This document shows, one piece after another, positions 74 to 18,917 of a stretch of DNA of 23,154 nucleotides (its first letter is position 1; each line of letters opens with the position of its first letter). A program made the position numbers and the translations under genes. The stretch comes from a virus. The notes under the pieces are model-generated. The model made no database searches. It was not told the origin of the DNA and was given only the letters and a program-made list of their open reading frames with translations. The DNA lies in IMG/VR virus record IMGVR_UViG_3300020404_000465, positions 1 to 23,154 of that record; one strand, 5' to 3'.

Positions 74-1785
74 TACACTTTAAGAAAGTTAAATGGAAGA
101 ATCTTCTTTCATCTGGTAATAAATTTACAACAATAGAATTAGATCGATCAGCAACAACACTTATTATAGGTGAGAATGGTGCTGGTAAATCAACTCTATT
201 AGATGCATTATGTTATGCATTATATGGTAAAGGGTTCCGTAATCTTAAGAAAGAACTTCTTGTAAATTCAATCAATGGAAAAGAAATGTTAGTAGAAGTA
301 GATTTCATGATTGGCAAAAAACAATATAAAGTAATTCGTGGAACTCGACCAAACAAATTCGAACTATATCTTGGAAACACAATGCTCAATCAAGATGCAA
401 GTGTACGAGATTATCAAGATCACTTAGAAAAGAATATACTCAAAATGAGTCATAGGTCTTTTACTCAAGTAGCAATTCTAGGGTCAGCAAACTTTACACC
501 TTTCATGCAATTAAAAGCAAGTGAGAGACGTAAACTTGTAGAGGACTTATTAGATATCTCTATCTTTAGTACTATGAGAGACATACTACGAAAGAAAGTA
601 TCATCACATAAAATTGATATTAAAGAGAACGAACATGAAATAGAAATTCTCGAAGAGAGAATCAATGGATTGACAGAGCAGATTAATGCTCTTCAAAAAA
701 ATCGTGATAAACAAATTCTTAAGTATGAATCAACCGTGAAAGAAACTGAAAATAATATTCAGACTTTAATGGAGACCATAGATGAAAAGACGAAAGATGT
801 GGTGGAGAAAGAATCCACTATCCAGAATAAAAATACAGTTGAAGATAGACTCAAACAAACTATTAACTTGGAGAAGCAACTCGAAACTGCTAGAAAGAAA
901 GCACTCGCAGATATTGAATTCTATGAGAACCACGACAACTGTCCAACATGTAAACAAGGACTAGATCATGAACATAAAGAGAAGTGCATACAGGAAAAGA
1001 CAGCAAAGGTCTCAGAGATCAAGAAGGCGGTTACAGAACTCGATGCGAAGATCAACGAACTTCATGACGAAATCGGACGAATCAATACCATTCAATCAGA
1101 AATCTTAGAGAAACAAAGAGAGATAGGACTATTACAAACAGAGATTACATCTAATCAAAAGTATATAAGTAAAGTTCAAGATCAAATAAATGATCTTACA
1201 AAAGCACAGATAGACAATAGTGCAAATGATAAACTAGCAACTAGTGAAGATGATCTAGATATCTTAGTTGCAAAGAAACAAGAACTCAAAGACAAAGAAC
1301 ATTACTTCAGTATCGCACAGATGTTATTACAAGATGCTGGTGTAAAACAAAAGATCATTAAACAATATGTACCTGTCATGAATAAACTTATTAATAAGTA
1401 TCTGGCAAATTTAGAATTCTATGTTGGGTTTGAACTTGATGAAGCATTTGAAGAAACAATCAAGTCTAGATTTAGAGATGTATTCAAATACGATAACTTC
1501 TCTCAAGGTGAAAAAATGAGAATTGATTTAGCATTACTATTCACATGGAGAGCAGTAGCAAGAATGAAGAACAGTGTAAATACTAACTTACTTATATTAG
1601 ATGAAGTATTTGATAGTTCTCTAGACACCCAGGGCACTGATGATTTTTTAAGACTGTTAAACACATTGACAGAAAAGACTAACGCATTTATAATAAGTCA
1701 TAAGGGCGATGCCTTGTACGACAAGTTTGATGAAGTAATTAAATTTGAAAAGTATAAAAACTTTAGTCGAATTTCGGTATCATAA
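70..1785 (+). CDS. 46: gp46-like recombination endonuclease subunit (Rad50/SbcC-type ATPase)
   Basis: ATPase subunit of the phage gp46/gp47 complex (Rad50/Mre11 type), which resects DNA ends for recombination-dependent replication. The 571 residues match the T4 gp46 length. The Walker A loop GENGAGKST is at residues 34-42. Two long coiled-coil stretches flank a zinc-hook CPTC at 291-294. The ABC signature FSQGEK is near 477-482, Walker B LLILDE ends at D511/E512, and a switch histidine (ISHKGD) is near 544. All ABC-type catalytic elements are present, so the protein should be active. It starts within the stop of the upstream frame and is followed directly by peptide deformylase. Family identity is very secure. 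Confidence 0.97.
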   Translation: MIHFKKVKWKNLLSSGNKFTTIELDRSATTLIIGENGAGKSTLLDALCYALYGKGFRNLKKELLVNSINGKEMLVEVDFMIGKKQYKVIRGTRPNKFELYLGNTMLNQDASVRDYQDHLEKNILKMSHRSFTQVAILGSANFTPFMQLKASERRKLVEDLLDISIFSTMRDILRKKVSSHKIDIKENEHEIEILEERINGLTEQINALQKNRDKQILKYESTVKETENNIQTLMETIDEKTKDVVEKESTIQNKNTVEDRLKQTINLEKQLETARKKALADIEFYENHDNCPTCKQGLDHEHKEKCIQEKTAKVSEIKKAVTELDAKINELHDEIGRINTIQSEILEKQREIGLLQTEITSNQKYISKVQDQINDLTKAQIDNSANDKLATSEDDLDILVAKKQELKDKEHYFSIAQMLLQDAGVKQKIIKQYVPVMNKLINKYLANLEFYVGFELDEAFEETIKSRFRDVFKYDNFSQGEKMRIDLALLFTWRAVARMKNSVNTNLLILDEVFDSSLDTQGTDDFLRLLNTLTEKTNAFIISHKGDALYDKFDEVIKFEKYKNFSRISVS

Positions 1786-1788
1786 ATA
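1781..1788 (+). promoter_or_regulatory. Late-promoter-like CATAAATA box before peptide deformylase
   Basis: CATAAATA overlaps the gp46 stop and lies five bases before the deformylase ATG. T4 late promoters carry TATAAATA as their only essential element, and related marine phages use similar boxes. No Shine-Dalgarno sequence is visible before this ATG. The same box with the same five-base spacing precedes the gene at 12053. Promoter activity is inference. Confidence 0.35.
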
Positions 1789-1793
1789 TAAGC

Positions 1794-2444
1794 ATGTACG
1801 AACTAGTAGAAGAAGCACATAAGGTATTAAGAGTACCACCTCCAGAATTTGATTTCGAGAATCCGCCTGAGGATCCAAAAGAGATCGAAAAGAATATGAT
1901 AGAAGCAATTGATAGATACGGTGGTCTTGGACTATCAGCAAATCAATGTGGATTACCATACAAAATGTTTGTTATGAGAACTGCTGATAAGGGTGTAGTT
2001 TCTTTTTGGAATCCAAAGTTATTAAAAGTATCTCAAGATACAGACAACATGAAAGAGGGTTGTCTATCTTTTCCAGATATCTATCTTATGATCAAGAGAT
2101 CGAAAGTCATAGAGTTTGAATATCAAGATACTGATGGAGAAAAAATAGTTCTTACATTAGAAGGAATGGCCTCTCGATGTGTTCAACATGAACTTGATCA
2201 CTTAAATGGTATACTGTTTCTACAAAGAGCATCACGTCTCAAGATAGAAAGAGCACTCAAGGCCAGACCAAAAGAAAAAAAGAAAAGAGAAGAGTATGAA
2301 AGAAGAATGCAAGTCGCAAGATATCTTGCCGATAGAGAGCAATCTAATGCCGATGCAGACGGAAGTGAAGATGCCATATCCTCCAAAGATGATACACAAC
2401 CTGTTGACTCCGGAAGAGGCGAAGAGTCTAATTCAGTTTCATAA
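1794..2444 (+). CDS. def: Peptide deformylase
   Basis: Removes the formyl group from the N-terminal methionine of new proteins. All three family motifs are intact: GLGLSANQ at residues 44-51, EGCLS at 88-92 with metal ligand C90, and HELDH at 132-136 with the two metal histidines and the catalytic glutamate. The catalytic domain ends near residue 160. A charged Lys/Arg/Glu-rich tail of about 50 residues follows; it is absent from short phage deformylases, and its end overlaps the next gene in another frame. Deformylase genes are common in marine T4-like phages, where they are thought to support fast protein synthesis during infection. No clear ribosome binding site is seen; a CATAAATA box lies just upstream. 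Confidence 0.95.
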   Translation: MYELVEEAHKVLRVPPPEFDFENPPEDPKEIEKNMIEAIDRYGGLGLSANQCGLPYKMFVMRTADKGVVSFWNPKLLKVSQDTDNMKEGCLSFPDIYLMIKRSKVIEFEYQDTDGEKIVLTLEGMASRCVQHELDHLNGILFLQRASRLKIERALKARPKEKKKREEYERRMQVARYLADREQSNADADGSEDAISSKDDTQPVDSGRGEESNSVS

Positions 2445-11967: not shown

Positions 11968-11992
11968 ACGTTTAAAACTTAAACAATTGACA

Positions 11993-12018
11993 AGGGACTC
12001 GGAAGAGTCCCTTTTTTT
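11993..12018 (+). terminator. Strong intrinsic terminator
   Basis: AGGGACTC (11993-12000), loop GGAA, and GAGTCCCT (12005-12012) form a perfect 8-bp stem followed by a run of T to 12018. It ends the 11692 transcript and isolates the curli-like cassette downstream from the replication operon. Confidence 0.93.
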
Positions 12019-12019
12019 A

Positions 12020-12034
12020 TGTGAATAGTTCACA
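12020..12034 (+). promoter_or_regulatory. TGTGA-N5-TCACA palindrome (operator candidate)
   Basis: TGTGAATAGTTCACA has two 6-bp arms (TGTGAA/TTCACA) around three bases. The half-sites equal the CRP half-site TGTGA, but the spacing is five rather than the six bases of a classical CRP site. It lies between the terminator and the first gene of the cassette that includes an adenylate cyclase. Operator function is inference. Confidence 0.4.
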
Positions 12035-12039
12035 AAAAG

Positions 12040-12047
12040 CATAAATA
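12040..12047 (+). promoter_or_regulatory. Late-promoter-like CATAAATA box before the curli-like cassette
   Basis: CATAAATA sits five bases before the ATG at 12053, in the same geometry as the box before peptide deformylase at 1781. It resembles the T4 late promoter TATAAATA. No ribosome binding site is visible, so a transcript from here would be leaderless or nearly so. Confidence 0.4.
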
Positions 12048-12052
12048 ATTGC

Positions 12053-12349
12053 ATGGAAGATTTGTTATTATTAATTGAAGAAGTGGGAATACCAATTGCT
12101 GGTTCGATAGTAATGGCATTTTTTATCTTCCTAACTCTACGTTACATCTTAGAAGGTGTAGCAGATGACGTGAAAACATTAACTGGTATGGTATCGATGT
12201 TGGAAGACAGGGCCAGAGTAATGAATAATGAAATTATCAAGATCGATTTACTAATATCTCAAGCACTTGAACTTCAACCAGATCTAGAACGAGTAGCAAG
12301 AAGTGAAAACTTCATTGAAGATGGTGGAATAGATGCTCGGAGAGATTAA
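12053..12349 (+). CDS. Membrane protein with C-terminal coiled coil, twin 1
   Basis: A 98-residue protein. One transmembrane helix spans about residues 11-33 (GIPIAGSIVMAFFIFLTLRY), followed by a helical, charged region likely to form a coiled coil (LTGMVSMLEDRARVMNNEI). It is similar in plan and in short motifs (xxxGxPIxxxxxMxxFI...Y...E) to the next gene, so the two are probably duplicates. It is the first gene after the terminator and the start of the curli-like cassette. Function unknown; small phage membrane proteins of this shape are often called holin-like without proof. Confidence 0.75.
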   Translation: MEDLLLLIEEVGIPIAGSIVMAFFIFLTLRYILEGVADDVKTLTGMVSMLEDRARVMNNEIIKIDLLISQALELQPDLERVARSENFIEDGGIDARRD

Positions 12350-12612
12350 TGGTAGACGAGTTAGTTAAGATAGTAAATGATTTTGGATTTCCTGTTGTTA
12401 TGGCATTAGGTATGGGTTACTTTATATACTTCATTTGGCAATATGTTACTGAAGAATTAGAACCCAAAATAGATAAGCAGAGAACCACTCTTATCAAACT
12501 GATCGATCAAATGCGAATGCTAGATCAAGATCAGATACGTCTTCAGCAAAAGTTGAATACAGTATTAGAAATTAGAAGGAACAGGAAACGTGAAAAGAAT
12601 AATAAGTCTTAG
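12349..12612 (+). CDS. Membrane protein with C-terminal coiled coil, twin 2
   Basis: An 87-residue protein starting on the last base of the upstream stop (TAATG), with GGAGAG nearby. A single transmembrane helix lies at about residues 12-34 (FGFPVVMALGMGYFIYFIWQ). A coiled-coil stretch follows (KIDKQRTTLIKLIDQMRML), and the tail is very basic (RRNRKREKNNKS). It has the same architecture as the gene at 12053. Its end overlaps the GTG start of the CsgF-like gene, which ties it to the curli-like operon. Function unknown. Confidence 0.75.
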   Translation: MVDELVKIVNDFGFPVVMALGMGYFIYFIWQYVTEELEPKIDKQRTTLIKLIDQMRMLDQDQIRLQQKLNTVLEIRRNRKREKNNKS

Positions 12613-13087
12613 TATAATATTATCACTGCCAATCATGGCAGATGAGATCAAATTTGGATTTAAGAATCCATCTTTCAGTGGCATTGGAACAGGTGCTCAC
12701 TATCTTACTATTGAGAACCAAGAGTTCTCTAGAAAAAAACAAATTGAAGATGCTCTCGAATCAGCACGAAAGGCCGCTGAACGAGAAGCAGAGAATACAA
12801 CCCTGGCAAAATTCATTAGAAACTTAGAATCAAGAATCTATGCTCAGTTTGCCAAACAATTAGTAGAATCAATGTTTGCAAATGACAACCCTGCAGGGTT
12901 TGGATCATTTGCTTTAGAAGGAAATATCATCACATGGGAAGTGATAACAGATGAATCTGGTGCAGAGTTTATCAGATTGACAGTTGTATCAGAAGATGGA
13001 ACTGAAACAGTGTTAGAGATCCCAGTTGGTACAGGGAACTTTGGACAAGACCCTGATACTGGTGGTGGTTCTGACGGAGGCGGATAA
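12590..13087 (+). CDS. csgF: CsgF-like curli assembly factor
   Basis: CsgF caps the CsgG outer-membrane channel and couples curlin nucleation to secretion. The gene starts at GTG 12590 behind AGGA. A signal peptide (MKRIISLSIILSLPIMA) is followed by KFGFKNPSFSG..GAHYL, matching the CsgF N-terminal F-R-N-P-x-F-G-G...GAFLLN block that inserts in the channel. A charged helical middle follows. The C-terminal beta part (NIITWEVITDESG.. TETVLEIPVG) matches the end of CsgF. The Gly/Asp-rich tail (GGGSDGGG) is extra, giving 165 residues against about 138 in E. coli. The TAATG overlap with csgG supports the pairing. Confidence 0.87.
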   Translation: MKRIISLSIILSLPIMADEIKFGFKNPSFSGIGTGAHYLTIENQEFSRKKQIEDALESARKAAEREAENTTLAKFIRNLESRIYAQFAKQLVESMFANDNPAGFGSFALEGNIITWEVITDESGAEFIRLTVVSEDGTETVLEIPVGTGNFGQDPDTGGGSDGGG

Positions 13088-14046
13088 TGCTCAGGTCAGT
13101 TCTCTTAGCAACAATGATTGTTCTCACAGGGTGTGCATCAGTGCCCAAATGGTCAGACAATCCAGCGGACTGTGCCTATGAAACAGGCAGATTTGAAGAG
13201 GGTTGGAAAAAAGATGTTGTAACTGGTATAGCAAAATCAGTAACAAGAAAATACATATGTGTAGAAAACCCAGAGGTTGTAAGACTTCCATCATATATTG
13301 ATCTATTAAATTTACCACCAGCAAAAGAACGACCAGTAGTTGCAGTATATAATTTTATAGACAAAACAGGACAAAGAAAATCAGTTGATAACATAGCATC
13401 TTTTTCTACAGCAGTAACACAGGGTGGTGTAGAAATGGTTATCGATGCATTAAAGACAGCAGGAAAAGGAACATGGTTTCGAGTTGTCGAAAGAAATGGT
13501 ATAGATGCATTAGTTAGAGAGAGACAAATTATAAGATCAGCACGTCAAGACTATGCTCGTTCTACGGGCGAAGAAGTCGAAGACGTACAACCACTTTTGT
13601 TTGCTGGCATAATAATAGAAGGTGGTGTAATTGGTTATGATTCCAATTTGATGACAGGTGGACGAGGCGCACGAACACTTGGAATTGGATATACGAAACA
13701 GTACAGGCAAGATGCAGTTACAGTTTCTATGAGAGCAGTTTCAGTTCTCACAGGTGAAGTTTTGTTAAACGTTCAGACTCGTAAGACGATTCTGAGTTAC
13801 GGATCAGGTGGAGATATTTTTAGATTCATCGAGCAAGGAACTCAGTTGGTAGAATACGAAGATGGAATTGGTAATAATGAATCGGTGACTTATGCTACGA
13901 GAACGGCAATTGAAGCGGCCGTTCTTGAATTAATCTACCAGGGACACGATAGAGGTTTCTGGGTTATCGAGGGAGATCATAGACACCCACACGGAAGTGA
14001 TGGGAAGAATGATAAACACCCTCTAGGAGAAAACGAAAATGAATAA
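13087..14046 (+). CDS. csgG: CsgG-like outer-membrane secretion channel lipoprotein
   Basis: CsgG is a nonameric lipoprotein pore that exports curlin subunits across the outer membrane. A lipoprotein signal with lipobox LTGC places the lipidated Cys at residue 16. Core family blocks follow: VAVYNFIDKTGQ, FSTAV, WFRVVERNGIDALVRERQIIR, IIIEGGVIGYDSN, GGRGARTLGIG, YRQDAVTVSMRAVSVLTGEVL, TRKTILSY and FRFIE, ending in DRGFWVI. The length of 319 residues exceeds E. coli (277) through an N-terminal insert and a His/Asp-rich tail. The curlin-like gene begins inside its 3' end. No CsgE or CsgD is seen in the window. Confidence 0.95.
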   Translation: MLRSVLLATMIVLTGCASVPKWSDNPADCAYETGRFEEGWKKDVVTGIAKSVTRKYICVENPEVVRLPSYIDLLNLPPAKERPVVAVYNFIDKTGQRKSVDNIASFSTAVTQGGVEMVIDALKTAGKGTWFRVVERNGIDALVRERQIIRSARQDYARSTGEEVEDVQPLLFAGIIIEGGVIGYDSNLMTGGRGARTLGIGYTKQYRQDAVTVSMRAVSVLTGEVLLNVQTRKTILSYGSGGDIFRFIEQGTQLVEYEDGIGNNESVTYATRTAIEAAVLELIYQGHDRGFWVIEGDHRHPHGSDGKNDKHPLGENENE

Positions 14047-14785
14047 AATACTTAGTTTAGTATTATTACTAATGTCGACAACATTTGTTTTCGCGGCGGC
14101 CACTGATGATAACGAAGTAAAAATAACCCAAGTCGGGGATACTTTAAAACTTTACATTGATCAGATAGGATTCGGTAACAAAGTAGGTGGAAATGATGCC
14201 TCAGGCGGAACATTATCATCTATGACACTTACTGGTTCAACACTAGATTTTAATATCGACTTAGTCGGTAATCAAAACTTATTGTACGGACCTTTCATAG
14301 CAGATAGTTATGATGTAATTCTAAATGTAACAGGAGACTCTAACGAGTTTGACTGGAATGTAGGTTCTAGTGGATCATCTGATTCAGGTGATATGAACTT
14401 TGTCATTACTGGTGATTCAAACACCTTTGATATTGATCAAGGTGCCACCGCATCAGCAGAATTCTTAAATGCAGATTTAGTATTGCAATCAGGTTCTTCA
14501 AGTAATGTCTTTGACATTGATTGGGAATCAGATAACATTGTTTGGAACTTAGATATAGATGGTTCTTCAAACAATATCAATACATTGCAGAACGATGGTG
14601 AACAAAGTCTAACTTTAACATTAGACGGTTCAAGTGCTGACGTGGATATCAATCAGTTATCAGGTACATGTGCGGCAGGTGCATCAAATGCCTGTTCATC
14701 GCCCAATGCGATTATAAACCTAGATGTCGATAGTGAAAATGCAGTCATTCAGATCAATCAAAAAGATTCTGCTAACGACTCTTAG
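14039..14785 (+). CDS. Secreted curlin-like repeat protein 1 (amyloid subunit candidate)
   Basis: Likely cargo of the CsgG-like channel. Signal peptide MNKILSLVLLLMSTTFVFA, then 229 residues rich in Asn, Asp, Ser, Gly and Gln. Strand-turn units recur about every 20-25 residues: ITQVGDTLKLYIDQIGFGN, NIDLVGNQN, VTGDSNEFDW, ITGDSNTFDIDQ, LQSGSSSNVFDID, LDIDGSSNNI, LTLDGSSADVDINQ. Curlin repeats are S-x5-Q-x-G-x-x-N-x5-Q; here the G-x-x-N core and the alternation are kept but Gln is often Asp. A Cys pair lies near the C-terminus (GTCAAGASNAC). It has a good ribosome binding site (TAGGAGA) inside csgG. Confidence 0.85.
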   Translation: MNKILSLVLLLMSTTFVFAAATDDNEVKITQVGDTLKLYIDQIGFGNKVGGNDASGGTLSSMTLTGSTLDFNIDLVGNQNLLYGPFIADSYDVILNVTGDSNEFDWNVGSSGSSDSGDMNFVITGDSNTFDIDQGATASAEFLNADLVLQSGSSSNVFDIDWESDNIVWNLDIDGSSNNINTLQNDGEQSLTLTLDGSSADVDINQLSGTCAAGASNACSSPNAIINLDVDSENAVIQINQKDSANDS

Positions 14786-15890
14786 TACTTTGTTAATCAG
14801 TGGGATTGTGTTAAGCAATCCCATTGGTGATATTGTAGAACAATCTGGTAATGGTTTCATCACCAGAGATAAAGAACAATTAGAAAATCCTGTAGGGACA
14901 GAGATTGTTCTTAAAGATGAAGCACAAACAGTCAATGGTAGAATGAAAATTGTCTTCTTAGACAATGAAGTTTTAGATATGACTGAACACACTTATGCTT
15001 ATATCGATGAAGCATATTATGATCCCAATCCAAACTTATCTAAAATGTCCATTAAAATGGTACAGGGTACAGCAAGATTTACATCTGGATTAGGTAATAG
15101 AATCAACAAAGCAAACGTAAACGTTTCAACACCAACTGCTCAGATATCAATTAAGGGTACAGATTTCACTACAACCGTAGATGAGATCGGAAGATCATTA
15201 GTGATCTTACTCCCAGATGAAGAGACAGGAGAATCAAGTGGCGAAATAGTAGTTTCAAATTTAGGTGGTGAAGTTACACTCAATCAACCATATCAAGCAA
15301 CTGTAGTTGCAACATTAGATACTGCACCAACTACAGCATTAACAATTAATAACATTACACCAAACATGATCGATAATATGTTTATTGTTAATCCACCACC
15401 TGAAGTAAGAGAACAATTAGAAGATGATTACAGAGATGATCAAGATCAAGATCAAGGTATTCTAGATGTAGACTTCTTAGAATTTAACGAACTCGAAGGT
15501 GATGCATTAGCAGACACTACAGAGGACTTATCTTTCTCAGAGTTGGACATAGACTTTCTTGATGTTGATTTCTTGACTGATCTCTTAGACGTAGTACCAG
15601 AATTAGAAAGAACAACAGTTCAACTTAGAGATGTGCAATCAGGATCTAGTGCAGTAGGAAATATAGATTTGATCGGAGCGGCCTTTGGATTCAATAAAGA
15701 CTCGCAGTATAATATTTTTATCAGAGACAATGAACTAATATTCTTTAGAGATGTTAATGGTCTCATAGAAATTATCATAGCAAGTGGCAACTCTGGTACT
15801 TTAGAAACAAATGTCGACAGTTATCAAGGTATAATAGAATTTGGTAGTGGAGACAAAGCAATTGAGATTGTGATCAATCAATCTAACTAA
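14739..15890 (+). CDS. FecR-domain exported protein
   Basis: An exported protein of about 383 residues. A signal peptide (SIKKILLTTLSTLLISGIVLS) is followed by a FecR domain: QSGNGFITRDKEQLENPVG, then L-x-D-x-x-x-V-N-G-R-M, MTEHTYAYIDE, a MVQGTARF strand and TPTAQISIKGTDF. A very acidic linker (about residues 220-275) precedes a beta-rich C-terminal part ending in INQSN. I chose ATG 14739 because it starts right at the signal peptide; ATG 14724 adds five residues. Both overlap the curlin-like gene. FecR domains are periplasmic sensors, and FecR genes often neighbour CHASE2 cyclase genes, as here. Confidence 0.85.
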   Translation: MQSFRSIKKILLTTLSTLLISGIVLSNPIGDIVEQSGNGFITRDKEQLENPVGTEIVLKDEAQTVNGRMKIVFLDNEVLDMTEHTYAYIDEAYYDPNPNLSKMSIKMVQGTARFTSGLGNRINKANVNVSTPTAQISIKGTDFTTTVDEIGRSLVILLPDEETGESSGEIVVSNLGGEVTLNQPYQATVVATLDTAPTTALTINNITPNMIDNMFIVNPPPEVREQLEDDYRDDQDQDQGILDVDFLEFNELEGDALADTTEDLSFSELDIDFLDVDFLTDLLDVVPELERTTVQLRDVQSGSSAVGNIDLIGAAFGFNKDSQYNIFIRDNELIFFRDVNGLIEIIIASGNSGTLETNVDSYQGIIEFGSGDKAIEIVINQSN

Positions 15891-15911
15891 ATATAACACG
15901 GAGGAAAATTT

Positions 15912-16058
15912 ATGCAATATTTAACAAAGTTTTTAGAATGGCATGAAGATTTGACCTACAAATGGTTAGAACGCCTACAGATAACTGAGTATCAAGCAAT
16001 GCTCATATCTTTTTTAGAAGGTGCTCTACTTACACTATTATTAGTATGGATTTTTTAA
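15912..16058 (+). CDS. Small membrane protein (48 aa)
   Basis: A 48-codon frame behind a strong ribosome binding site (GGAGGAAAA), between FecR and the second curlin-like gene. The N-terminal half is amphipathic with several Trp residues (LEWHEDLTYKWLERLQ). The C-terminal half is one transmembrane helix (MLISFLEGALLTLLLVWIF). Its end overlaps the next start by 13 bases, which suggests coupled translation. I do not recognise it. The strong ribosome binding site and the overlap make it likely real. Confidence 0.65.
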   Translation: MQYLTKFLEWHEDLTYKWLERLQITEYQAMLISFLEGALLTLLLVWIF

Positions 16059-16705
16059 AAAGAACATTTATTATAGGGGCATTTATTTTAATAAGTGCCC
16101 TCACTTTTGCCGATGACAATCACGTTCATGTAGAACAAGTCAATGGTGGTGATAACTTAACACTTAATGTTGAGCAAATAGGATATGGAAATCTTATTAG
16201 ATTCACTACTGATCACGGAAACAACACATTCAATCTCTCTCAAAAAGGTAATGGCAATACAATCTCATGGGTCCCTTGGTGGGGTTCTGGAGAAGCATGG
16301 GGCGGTGATGTTGACGGATCAAACAACACAATCAATATCGATCAAGACGGTGGATCAACATATGGTGCTCACGTCTTAGGCAATTACAATGAAGTCAATG
16401 TAGAACAAGACGGTACACACGAAACGTACCTAGATATTCATGCAAGTTATACAGAGACAAACATAGATCAAGATGGATCAGGCGACAAATACGCAAGAGT
16501 ATATTATTATGGTAGTACAAATAACTCAGAAGTAAACTTAATACAGAATGGTACAGGTACACACGGTGCTTACATTCAACTTCAAGGAAATTATTTAACT
16601 ACACTCAATCTCACTCAACAAGGTGCAACAGCACAATCTTATAATCTTACACAGAACTGTATGACAGTTGGTGGTTGCTCAGTCTCAGTTACACAGGGCA
16701 ACTAA
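16046..16705 (+). CDS. Secreted curlin-like repeat protein 2 (amyloid subunit candidate)
   Basis: The closer of the two to curlin. A signal peptide (MDFLKRTFIIGAFILISALTFA) precedes about 197 residues with repeated Q-x-G-x-x-N units: LNVEQIGYGNLI, FNLSQKGNGNTI, INIDQDGGS, VNVEQDGTHET, TNIDQDGSGDKY, VNLIQNGTGTHG, LNLTQQGATAQSYNLTQ. The spacing is about 20-24 residues, as in CsgA/CsgB. The mature N-terminus (DDNHVHVEQV...QIGYGN) closely matches that of the protein at 14039, so the two are related subunits. A C-terminal Cys pair (NCMTVGGC) recurs. Presumed to be secreted through CsgG and to form fibres; not shown here. Confidence 0.87.
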   Translation: MDFLKRTFIIGAFILISALTFADDNHVHVEQVNGGDNLTLNVEQIGYGNLIRFTTDHGNNTFNLSQKGNGNTISWVPWWGSGEAWGGDVDGSNNTINIDQDGGSTYGAHVLGNYNEVNVEQDGTHETYLDIHASYTETNIDQDGSGDKYARVYYYGSTNNSEVNLIQNGTGTHGAYIQLQGNYLTTLNLTQQGATAQSYNLTQNCMTVGGCSVSVTQGN

Positions 16706-16782
16706 TGTTACCTCAAAATAGATATAGAAAGTATAGACTTATGGAATGGAGAAAGGGATTGATTATAGATATCTATGTATAA
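16705..16782 (+). CDS. Possible 25-codon peptide before the cyclase
   Basis: ATG at 16705 overlaps the preceding stop (TAATG) and opens a 25-codon basic frame (MLPQNRYRKYRLMEWRKGLI...), which ends just after the cyclase ATG at 16775. It may couple translation of the cyclase to the curlin-like gene. It contains internal GGAGAAAGG-like sequence that could be the cyclase ribosome binding site. Weak evidence; it could be chance. Confidence 0.3.
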   Translation: MLPQNRYRKYRLMEWRKGLIIDIYV

Positions 16783-18613
16783 TTGGAAAACAGTTTTAGT
16801 TACAATCGGTCTATGTTTAGGATTAAAAATATGGAATCCATATTTCATAGAAAATATATCATGGTCATGGTTTGACTTCTTACATCAACAACAAGAGATT
16901 CAAAAAGTAGAAGACATTGTTCTAGTGGACATAGATGAAAAGTCCCTAGAAAAATATGGTCAATATCCTTGGCCGAGAGGAATTTATGGGGAGATATTAT
17001 TAAATACTGACCCAAGTTTGACACATGTTTTTGCAATTGGGTTTACTGAACCGGATCGTTTCCAACAAGACAATGATTTTGCGTTAGGACTAATCAATAG
17101 ATTGTCCGTCTTATCATCTCAACCAACTAATCAAAAAGGCACCGGGGCCGCACCTTTCGTCAAGACTACAACATTTGGTGGTGGACAGATAGAAGATTCT
17201 ATTTGGTCTTATGATGGGATCGCATCACCGGTTGAAGTTCTGCGTAACAATACTTATGGTGTTGGTGTTACAGTTGCTACACCTTCTCAGATGGGTACAG
17301 CAAACTTTGATGGAACAATTAGATCAGCACCACTTATCGTAAAAGCAAACGATGTTATATATCCATCTCTTGCTCTAGAGACACTCAGAGCATTATACGA
17401 TATGCCTAACTACAATACAAAAGTTACACCAGAAGTTGGAATAGAATGGATCAGAATGGGTAAAGCACCACCAATCGAGACTACTCCAACAAGTGATGTA
17501 ATGATCAGTTATTGGAACGAGTTTGATAGAATATCAGCAAGTGATCTTGAGACTGCTAATCTTACAAACAAGGTTCTAGTATGGGGTCTAACTGCTGAGG
17601 GATTGAATAATCCAATTTCAACCCCAGTGGGTGTATTATATCCTCATCAAGTTCAAGCAAACCTAATCCAAACCGTTCTGCAAGAAGTTCGAATACAACA
17701 ATCCTACTATCTTGAATTTCTCGAAGTTGTTCTTCTCTTGACAGTTTTGCTAGGAATATTGGGAGCGGTTTACATGCTTCCCACAACTGTTTCGGCGATA
17801 GTGAGTTTAGGTATTGTTGGACTTCAGTTGGGTGGTGGATTCTGGATTTGGACTTATGATTACGTTCTTTTCGATACTTTCTGGTCATCGATATCCTCCA
17901 TAATGGTATTTGGACATGCTTCTTTCAACAAATACTATATTACATATCAACTCAAAGAACAAATTAAGAAACAGTTCAAGATGTATTTATCTCCAGACAT
18001 GGTTGAGGAGTTGCAGAAAGACCCTAGCAAACTCAAGTTAGGTGGGGATAGAAAAGAGATGACTTTCTTATTCATGGACATCTGTGGATTTACTCCTGTT
18101 TCTGAACATTACAAAAACAAAGATGACCCAGAGGGTCTAGTCATACTTATTAATAAATATCTAGATACGATGACAAAAATTATACTAAGTCATGGTGGTA
18201 CCATTGATAAGTATATGGGTGATTGCATAATGGCATTTTGGAATGCTCCTTTGGATTGTGAAGATCATGCTCAGAAGGCAATTGATGCATCGAGAGAAAT
18301 ATCAGAGAAAGCAGATGAACTTATTAAAGAATATGAAGAACAAGGTCTTCCTAGGATTGATGTTGGTATCGGGATTAGTACAGGGGAATGTATTGTCGGA
18401 AACATGGGATCAGAACTTAGATTTGACTATTCCGTCATCGGAGATGCCGTCAACTTGGGTGCTAGACTCGAAGGACAAACTAGAAATTATGATGGGATTC
18501 GAGTGTTGCTATCGCAAAGAACTGCTGGACTCTGTCAAGCAGGACTATTTACTAGAGTCGATGATATCAAAGTCAAAGGAAAAGAAGAACTCGTTACAAT
18601 TTACACTATCTGA
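16775..18613 (+). CDS. Membrane adenylate cyclase with CHASE2 sensor domain
   Basis: A 612-residue class III nucleotidyl cyclase, probably making cAMP. An N-terminal membrane helix is followed by an extracytoplasmic CHASE2 domain (VEDIVLVDIDEKSLEKYGQY, PWPRGIYGEIL; to about residue 305). Two or three more membrane helices lie at about 312-385. The catalytic domain has metal ligands D435 (FMDICGFT) and D483 (DKYMGDC inside GTIDKYMGD), purine-specifying K479, and YSVIGDAVNLGARLE with transition-state N560 and R564. S553 sits where adenylate cyclases have Asp or Thr, so ATP is the likely substrate but not proven. All catalytic residues are present. FecR, its usual genomic neighbour, is two genes upstream. 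Confidence 0.93.
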   Translation: MYNWKTVLVTIGLCLGLKIWNPYFIENISWSWFDFLHQQQEIQKVEDIVLVDIDEKSLEKYGQYPWPRGIYGEILLNTDPSLTHVFAIGFTEPDRFQQDNDFALGLINRLSVLSSQPTNQKGTGAAPFVKTTTFGGGQIEDSIWSYDGIASPVEVLRNNTYGVGVTVATPSQMGTANFDGTIRSAPLIVKANDVIYPSLALETLRALYDMPNYNTKVTPEVGIEWIRMGKAPPIETTPTSDVMISYWNEFDRISASDLETANLTNKVLVWGLTAEGLNNPISTPVGVLYPHQVQANLIQTVLQEVRIQQSYYLEFLEVVLLLTVLLGILGAVYMLPTTVSAIVSLGIVGLQLGGGFWIWTYDYVLFDTFWSSISSIMVFGHASFNKYYITYQLKEQIKKQFKMYLSPDMVEELQKDPSKLKLGGDRKEMTFLFMDICGFTPVSEHYKNKDDPEGLVILINKYLDTMTKIILSHGGTIDKYMGDCIMAFWNAPLDCEDHAQKAIDASREISEKADELIKEYEEQGLPRIDVGIGISTGECIVGNMGSELRFDYSVIGDAVNLGARLEGQTRNYDGIRVLLSQRTAGLCQAGLFTRVDDIKVKGKEELVTIYTI

Positions 18614-18917
18614 ACCAATCACAAATGCTCAATGGATTACATTCGGCACTCTACAATTAGCAGACATCTATACAACCTATCGTGGACTTCAATATGATTG
18701 TGTTAAAGAATTAAATCCTATTATTGGAGAAAGACCATCAGTAGGTAAGATGATCTTTATCAAGACAGTAGTTCTCTCACCAGCAATTAGACATGATTTG
18801 AATAGAGAAGTAATATCAACAAAAACTATGGATCAAATGAACTTTCTAATGGGTTTAGTTGTGGGTAACAACTATAATGTCTGGAGAAAAGCAGACAAGT
18901 ATTGCAATAAATACTAA
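18561..18917 (+). CDS. Hypothetical membrane-associated protein (DUF5658-like)
   Basis: The frame is open from 18243, but most of that overlaps the cyclase. The plausible start is ATG 18561, giving 118 residues and a 53-base overlap. The core reads WITFGTLQLADIYTTYRGL, then DCVKELNPIIGERPS and MIFIKTVVLSPAI. This D-x-x-x-T-x-x-G-L...E-x-N-P-x-x-G pattern resembles DUF5658-type small membrane proteins and similar unknowns of marine phages. Hydrophobic stretches are short, so membrane association is likely but not certain. Function unknown. Confidence 0.65.
   Translation: MISKSKEKKNSLQFTLSEPITNAQWITFGTLQLADIYTTYRGLQYDCVKELNPIIGERPSVGKMIFIKTVVLSPAIRHDLNREVISTKTMDQMNFLMGLVVGNNYNVWRKADKYCNKY

What the first reader, a model, noticed from the sequence alone, without database searches (positions are those of the whole stretch)
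12590..16705. Phage-borne curli-like secretion module: CsgF, CsgG and two curlin-like proteins
Seen: adjacent genes with clear CsgF and CsgG family blocks, followed by two exported proteins with curlin-type Q-x-G-x-x-N or G-D-S-N repeats, all inside a T4-like genome. Known: CsgG is the outer-membrane channel and CsgF the cap of the type VIII (curli) secretion system in bacteria. I recall curli-type genes being noted in marine pelagic myophages but cannot check. Inference: the phage makes its infected host export amyloid-like fibres or open outer-membrane pores. Possible uses are blocking superinfection, clumping cells, trapping progeny or aiding release. CsgE and CsgD are missing, so the phage version is minimal.
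Basis: partly seen in the sequence, partly recalled or inferred. Interest (0 to 1): 0.88.

Follow-up and report, generated by a model that had tools for sequence, protein, structure and literature searches.

The report
Marine phage curli-export and cyclase module
This ocean phage carries a compact gene set, apparently switched on late in infection, that should make an infected bacterium export amyloid-type (curli) fibres, coupled to a membrane sensor enzyme that makes cyclic AMP; the fibre genes were already published for such phages, but the sensor pairing and the late timing appear not to have been described.

Summary
CsgF (12590-13087), CsgG (13087-14046) and two exported curlin-repeat proteins (14039-14785, 16046-16705) are real members of those families. 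The module is longer than reported: two small one-pass membrane proteins before csgF, a FecR-domain exported protein (14724-15890) and a 48-aa membrane ORF between the curlins, and a CHASE2-adenylate cyclase (16775-18613) after them. All 84 loci collected keep this order. It is not new: pelagimyophage csgF/csgG were reported in 2020, curlins, FecR and cyclase in 2022. My additions: (1) FecR plus CHASE2-cyclase is a sensor pair found side by side in bacteria, so FecR is better read as the cyclase's exported partner than as an iron regulator; (2) the 'histidine kinase' of the 2022 paper has no detectable kinase domain; (3) a terminator and a T4-type late promoter motif 13 nt before the first ATG make the operon probably late; (4) the cyclase keeps its catalytic residues, yet the phages tested and nearly all SAR11-like hosts lack a recognisable cAMP receptor; (5) the second curlin evolves fastest. 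Most likely the phage exports curli-type fibres late in infection, with FecR/CHASE2-cyclase reporting on envelope or fibre. The biological purpose remains open.

The parts
11992..12022 (+). intrinsic terminator that separates the module from the upstream replication genes
   Evidence: 9-bp stem, 5 G-C pairs, then T run; terminator-like hairpins visible in the same place in many relatives
12040..12047 (+). T4-type late promoter element CATAAATA, exactly 13 nt before the first ATG
   Evidence: 42 of 48 distinct upstream regions have [TC]ATAAATA within 45 nt of the start, 29 at exactly -13; background 1.9% of ORFs; NATAAATA at -13 before HTVC008M virion genes
12053..12349 (+). TM1: 98-aa one-pass membrane protein with a polar tail; first gene of the operon; no kinase domain
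   Evidence: one hydrophobic segment; no Pfam/NCBIfam kinase match; PHROG 18771
12349..12612 (+). TM2: 87-aa paralogue of TM1
   Evidence: same PHROG 18771; alignment A5
12590..13087 (+). CsgF
   Evidence: PF10614; N-terminal motif F-x-x-N-P-x-F kept; solved CsgF relatives
13087..14046 (+). CsgG outer-membrane lipoprotein channel, with an extra N-terminal stretch containing two cysteines
   Evidence: PF03783 6e-50; solved CsgG 2.6e-47; alignment A1
14039..14785 (+). Cur1: curlin-repeat protein with signal peptide, slowly evolving
14724..15890 (+). FecR-domain exported protein (true start probably ATG 14739, by comparison with relatives): signal sequence, FecR fold, low-confidence (probably disordered) linker, C-terminal beta domain ending in hxhxQ
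   Evidence: PF04773 3e-7; model; fold match to PupR signalling domain Z 15.8 and to an adhesin cell-surface anchoring domain Z 7.1; tail motif 52/52
15912..16058 (+). 48-aa one-pass membrane protein overlapping the start of Cur2
   Evidence: 50 related ORFs in the loci, between FecR and Cur2; hydrophobic C-terminal segment; no Pfam match; GGAGGA before the ATG
16046..16705 (+). Cur2: second curlin-repeat protein, fast evolving and variable in size
   Evidence: PF07012; solved curli fibres hit; dN/dS
16775..18613 (+). CHASE2-domain class III adenylate cyclase: extracytoplasmic CHASE2 sensor, cytoplasmic cyclase
   Evidence: CHASE2 1.8e-28, Guanylate_cyc 2.2e-17; catalytic D435, K479, D483, N560, R564 kept; solved cyclases

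Best explanation
The module is a complete minimal type VIII (curli) export unit run by a T4-like marine phage late in infection, joined to an envelope-sensing cyclase. Shown by sequence: CsgG channel with CsgF, two exported curlins, an exported FecR-fold protein, a CHASE2 cyclase with an intact active site, fixed gene order and a late-promoter motif. Inferred: Cur1 is the structural fibre subunit and Cur2 a variable outer subunit; both leave through CsgG and nucleate on CsgF. The FecR protein sits or is anchored in the periplasm and contacts CHASE2, and its curlin-like tail may join it to the fibre, so that fibre export or attachment changes cyclase activity and cytoplasmic cAMP. What reads the cAMP is unknown. 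Superinfection exclusion, or another change of the cell surface late in infection, seems to me the most likely purpose, with low certainty.
For: CsgF/CsgG/curlin membership. Conserved CsgG-binding CsgF peptide. Invariant order in 84/84 loci; searching from the cyclase instead of csgG, 44/44 loci with enough upstream DNA carry TM, CsgF, CsgG, curlin and FecR. FecR directly in front of CHASE2-cyclase in Microvirga (two loci) and Polaromonas; 65 of 67 alphaproteobacterial genomes with a phage-like FecR also have CHASE2, against 24 of 123 without. FecR fold resembles a cell-surface signalling domain. FecR tail hxhxQ in 52/52 phage copies plus 2 copies in podovirus-type contigs, 0 of 15 bacterial FecR proteins from the class search and 0 of 4 CHASE2-linked ones. 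Late promoter motif (NATAAATA as marine T4-like late motif, PMC2984593). Purifying selection. A FecR-CHASE2 sensor operon is tied to biofilm loss in Burkholderia (PMC5192318).
Against: No fibres have been observed: no clumping in Melnitz cultures (PMC9004378). No CsgE, so export would be inefficient or gated otherwise. No cNMP-binding protein in 9 phage records and none in 58 of 60 host-family genomes, so a cAMP signal has no known reader. The FecR C-terminal domain is not profile-related to curlins, so the tail motif may be mere beta-strand convergence. CHASE2-FecR contact is inferred from gene neighbourhood only.
Confidence: 0.6

Rival explanations
1. CsgG (with or without CsgF) is a pore for lysis timing or for uptake/leakage of molecules, and the fibre role is lost (proposed for Melnitz in PMC9004378, and in part in PMC7029224).
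For: CsgE absent; the late promoter motif fits a lysis-phase role; small membrane proteins lie in front of csgF, with only weak, non-significant holin/spanin-like PHROG hits.
Against: Two curlins, FecR and cyclase stay linked and are under purifying selection; the CsgF peptide that enters CsgG is conserved. The claim that Melnitz lacks curlins is at odds with its own record, which annotates two curlin-repeat proteins. The phage has its own endolysin-like gene.
Confidence: 0.15
2. FecR and cyclase form an iron-citrate type regulatory circuit that turns the curli genes on, as suggested in PMC9599517.
For: The FecR fold matches PupR and anti-sigma regulators.
Against: The protein looks exported and has no anti-sigma domain hit; none of the scanned genes of the module is a sigma factor or TonB-dependent receptor; the operon has its own late promoter motif; bacterial FecR relatives co-occur with CHASE2.
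Confidence: 0.07
3. The cyclase is an independent host-takeover or anti-competitor device (flooding the cell with cAMP) that merely travels with the curli genes.
For: No cAMP receptor and no class III cyclase of their own in most SAR11-like genomes, so signalling in the usual sense is hard to see.
Against: 44/44 linkage to csg genes; conserved extracytoplasmic CHASE2 sensor; FecR kept as its partner.
Confidence: 0.15

Closest known systems
Pelagiphage type VIII secretion module (PMC7029224; PMC9599517; HTVC008M, Melnitz)
   Same: Same genes in the same order: small proteins, CsgF, CsgG, curlin, FecR, curlin, cyclase
   Different: This record is another member (CsgG 44-48% identical to the cultured phages). 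CHASE2, promoters and the 48-aa ORF are not discussed in the 2022 text as searched
Bacterial curli operons (csgBAC/csgDEFG; alphaproteobacterial csgF-csgG-curlin)
   Same: CsgF, CsgG and curlin-repeat genes adjacent
   Different: Bacterial operons examined have no FecR, cyclase or TM1/TM2 next to csgG; phage has no CsgE
Bacterial FecR-CHASE2 sensor operons (Burkholderia BiofilmReg, PMC5192318; Microvirga L177, L178; Polaromonas L185)
   Same: Exported FecR-domain protein encoded beside a CHASE2 membrane sensor
   Different: Phage FecR ends in a curlin-like strand motif, and a curlin gene lies between the pair

Membership tests
Curli (type VIII) export system | CsgG lipoprotein channel | tested here: met
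   PF03783 6e-50; solved CsgG 2.6e-47; lipobox 52/52
Curli (type VIII) export system | CsgF with the CsgG-binding N-terminal peptide | tested here: met
   PF10614; NPxF motif in 44/45
Curli (type VIII) export system | exported curlin-repeat subunit(s) | tested here: met
   Cur2 profile vs solved curli fibres 2.6e-11; Cur1 family members hit PF07012 45/47
Curli (type VIII) export system | CsgE periplasmic gate (accessory; not essential according to PMC7029224) | tested here: not met
   0 of 10 phage records and 0 of 4 host-family genomes; E. coli control positive
Curli (type VIII) export system | amyloid fibre on the cell surface | not testable with these tools
   needs Congo red/ThT assays and electron microscopy
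FecR iron-citrate anti-sigma regulator | cytoplasmic anti-sigma domain before the FecR domain, with sigma factor and TonB receptor nearby | tested here: not met
   only a PF04773 hit behind an N-terminal signal-like segment; none of the scanned module genes is a sigma factor or receptor
FecR-CHASE2 sensor pair | exported FecR-domain protein encoded beside a CHASE2 sensor | tested here: met
   both in the module; bacterial pairs
Class III adenylate cyclase | two metal Asp, purine Lys, transition-state Asn/Arg | tested here: met
   D435, D483, K479, N560, R564; 41-42 of 42 phage copies per motif; S553 in the Asp/Thr position; activity and ATP specificity not tested
Histidine kinase (name given in PMC9599517 to the gene before csgF) | phosphoacceptor and ATPase domains | tested here: not met
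   87-98 aa in the window, no kinase domain in 22 members scanned
T4-type late promoter | NATAAATA in promoter position, shared with virion genes, absent before replication genes | tested here: met
   42/48 relatives; several virion genes yes, gp43/44/45/46/47/62 no; transcription itself not measured

The most novel reading that the evidence does not exclude
The phage installs a complete outside-in signalling loop in its host: a late-made amyloid fibre whose anchor protein (FecR fold with a curlin-type tail) is read by a CHASE2 cyclase, producing cAMP in cells that have neither a class III cyclase nor a known cAMP receptor, so the signal must be read by an unknown phage or host protein.
Probability: 0.25. 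Interest if true: 0.8.

Novelty: new member of a known kind. Interest (0 to 1): 0.5.

Why it matters
SAR11 cells are among the most abundant on Earth, and the SAR11-like genomes tested have no csgF of their own. A phage module that makes such cells export amyloid fibres late in infection could change cell aggregation and superinfection in the ocean. The FecR-CHASE2 reading turns an unexplained 'iron regulator plus cyclase' into a testable fibre-sensing hypothesis, and the late promoter narrows when it acts. The missing cAMP reader is a concrete open question.

Tried and rejected
FecR C-terminal domain as a curlin relative: not supported by profile comparison (about 1% probability); only the short tail motif stands. 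Cur1 profile against solved chains: no hit. FecR profile against solved chains by sequence: no meaningful hit. TM1/TM2 as kinase, holin or known family: no significant match. Curli with FecR/CHASE2 as one bacterial operon: not found in 70 bacterial csgG loci with up to 10 kb on each side (less in short contigs) nor in 6 wider alphaproteobacterial csg loci. DNA similarity search: only 4% of the region matched HTVC008M. The ORF 18243-18917 ('down1') overlaps the cyclase; its apparent conservation there may come from the cyclase, so it was not counted. The Salmonella phage record OR851715 hit is an unannotated, unverified 1.5-kb clone and was used only as a csgG sequence. Early/sigma-70 promoter scan: no clear excess over shuffles.
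Full report
WHAT IS THERE. The window is a 23-kb virus record from a T4-like phage: gp46, peptide deformylase, gp45, gp44, gp62, RegA and gp43 all match phage families. Between RegA and the polymerase lies a one-strand operon at about 12040-18613.

HOW SOLID. A scan of IMG/VR with the window's CsgG returned 116 relatives, of which 80 were kept. Together with HTVC008M, Melnitz, the window and an extract of the window itself, all 84 loci have every module gene they contain in the same order and strand, 50 with all eight. Some of these contigs are near-duplicates, so 84 is not a count of independent cases; 22 representatives remained after dereplication by cyclase. A second scan starting from the cyclase gave 44 of 44 loci with at least 6.5 kb upstream carrying TM, CsgF, CsgG, curlin and FecR; some of these contigs are the same as in the first scan. 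The module sits after regA-type genes in 48 loci and in another setting in 9. Two contigs binned in SAR11-family genomes also carry it; one of them also encodes a large DNA-packaging-like protein, in line with the podovirus transfer described in PMC9599517. All genes are under purifying selection.

WHAT IS KNOWN. PMC7029224 (2020) reported csgF, csgG and linked genes in pelagimyophages and proposed sibling capture. PMC9599517 (2022) identified curlins, FecR, a 'histidine kinase' and a cyclase in podo- and myophages, reported expression in metatranscriptomes, and proposed superinfection defence, sibling capture or import. PMC9004378 (2022) described Melnitz, said it lacked csgA/B and proposed a lysis role; its GenBank record nevertheless annotates two curlin-repeat proteins, a FecR protein and a cyclase. 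The module itself is therefore not new.

The cyclase carries a CHASE2 extracytoplasmic sensor domain, a term absent from the 2022 paper. In Microvirga two CHASE2-cyclase genes each follow a FecR gene, and in Polaromonas the two overlap; in Microvirga they lie away from the csg locus. The FecR model matches the PupR cell-surface signalling domain (Z 15.8, 2.4 A, 135 residues) and an adhesin 'cell surface anchoring domain' (5ix9, Z 7.1, 2.0 A, 73 residues). In a SAR11-family genome a FecR gene and a CHASE2-SpoIIE gene lie beside a two-partner-secretion adhesin. In Burkholderia a FecR-CHASE2 kinase operon was found through a biofilm-negative insertion in its response regulator (PMC5192318). I therefore read FecR as an exported partner of CHASE2 linked to surface structures, not as an iron regulator. 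This is inference from neighbourhood and fold.

All 52 distinct complete phage FecR proteins end in h-x-h-x-Q, as do 54/54 Cur1 and 40/44 Cur2; CsgF, CsgG and cyclase have none, and 0 of 15 bacterial FecR proteins do; shuffled tails give 7%. The phage sequences are related, so these are not 52 independent events. Profile comparison of the FecR C-terminal domain with the curlins is negative. The motif suggests, but does not show, docking to the fibre.

A terminator (11992-12022) is followed by CATAAATA at 12040, 13 nt before the first ATG. The motif alone is not rare in the window, but its position is: in relatives [TC]ATAAATA lies within 45 nt of the start in 42 of 48 distinct upstream regions, 29 at exactly -13, against 1.9% of other ORFs. 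HTVC008M shows NATAAATA at exactly -13 before tape measure, tube cap and end-protector genes and near portal and protease, and none before gp43-47 and gp62. NATAAATA is the reported late motif of marine T4-like phages (PMC2984593). With T4 geometry (my knowledge) the transcript would start at the ATG, that is, be leaderless; this is a prediction. HTVC008M itself has the motif before the gene upstream of TM1 and again before csgF rather than before TM1.

The cyclase keeps the catalytic residues; the Melnitz copy has Ser for the transition-state Asn. Nine phage records have no cNMP-binding domain. In 60 genomes of a family that I identified as SAR11-like by a 16S probe sequence recalled from memory (names are hidden), cNMP-binding domains occur in 2; class III cyclases occur in 2, both on contigs with this phage module; CsgF occurs only in the same 2. 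The host of the window's phage is itself inferred from its relatives.

Its dN exceeds that of Cur1 in most pairs (for example 0.63 against 0.024 for window and L006) and its size ranges from about 184 to 441 aa; the HTVC008M copy lies in the family where one member carries a PA14 domain (by its length and sequence I take that member to be HTVC008M). This fits an exposed, possibly binding, subunit. The 'histidine kinase' preceding csgF in the 2022 paper corresponds by position to TM1/TM2, which have no kinase domain.

MECHANISM AND RIVALS. Best supported: late export of curli-type fibres through CsgG/CsgF, anchored or monitored by FecR/CHASE2-cyclase (0.6). The conserved CsgF N-terminal motif argues against the idea that phage CsgF no longer pairs with CsgG. 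Rivals: pore for lysis or uptake (0.15), free-standing cyclase (0.15), iron-type circuit (0.07). The purpose of the fibre cannot be settled by sequence.

VERDICT. Real, well conserved and biologically interesting, but a member of a published phage module. New points are the sensor pairing, the late promoter, the missing cAMP reader, the FecR tail, and the correction of the kinase label.

Noticed in passing
L002, L311 (HTVC008M) and window 1781-1794: NATAAATA sits at exactly -13 from the ATG of several genes, including peptide deformylase in the window (CATAAATA at 1781), suggesting leaderless late mRNAs in these phages in general.
   Followed up: partly
L003 10826-12877: Melnitz cyclase has Ser where the transition-state Asn is expected, a diverged cyclase domain and a C-terminal extension, so it may be inactive or swapped.
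   Followed up: no
L221 6049-16001: A SAR11-family genome carries CHASE2-SpoIIE, an unknown exported protein, FecR, then a ShlB-type transporter and a TPS adhesin.
   Followed up: partly
L222, L223, L085-L091: Genome bins of SAR11-family and of assorted bacteria (labelled Synechococcus, Sphingobacteriales, Planctomycetaceae and others) contain contigs with this phage module: probably misbinned phage DNA.
   Followed up: partly
L002 10638-11963: HTVC008M second curlin appears to have an N-terminal PA14 domain, a possible sugar-binding head on a curlin.
   Followed up: no
window 18567-18917: Small ORF after the cyclase with a sub-threshold DUF5658 match.
   Followed up: no
window 13087-14046: Extra region between lipobox and channel domain of CsgG with two cysteines conserved in close relatives but absent in HTVC008M and Melnitz.
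   Followed up: no
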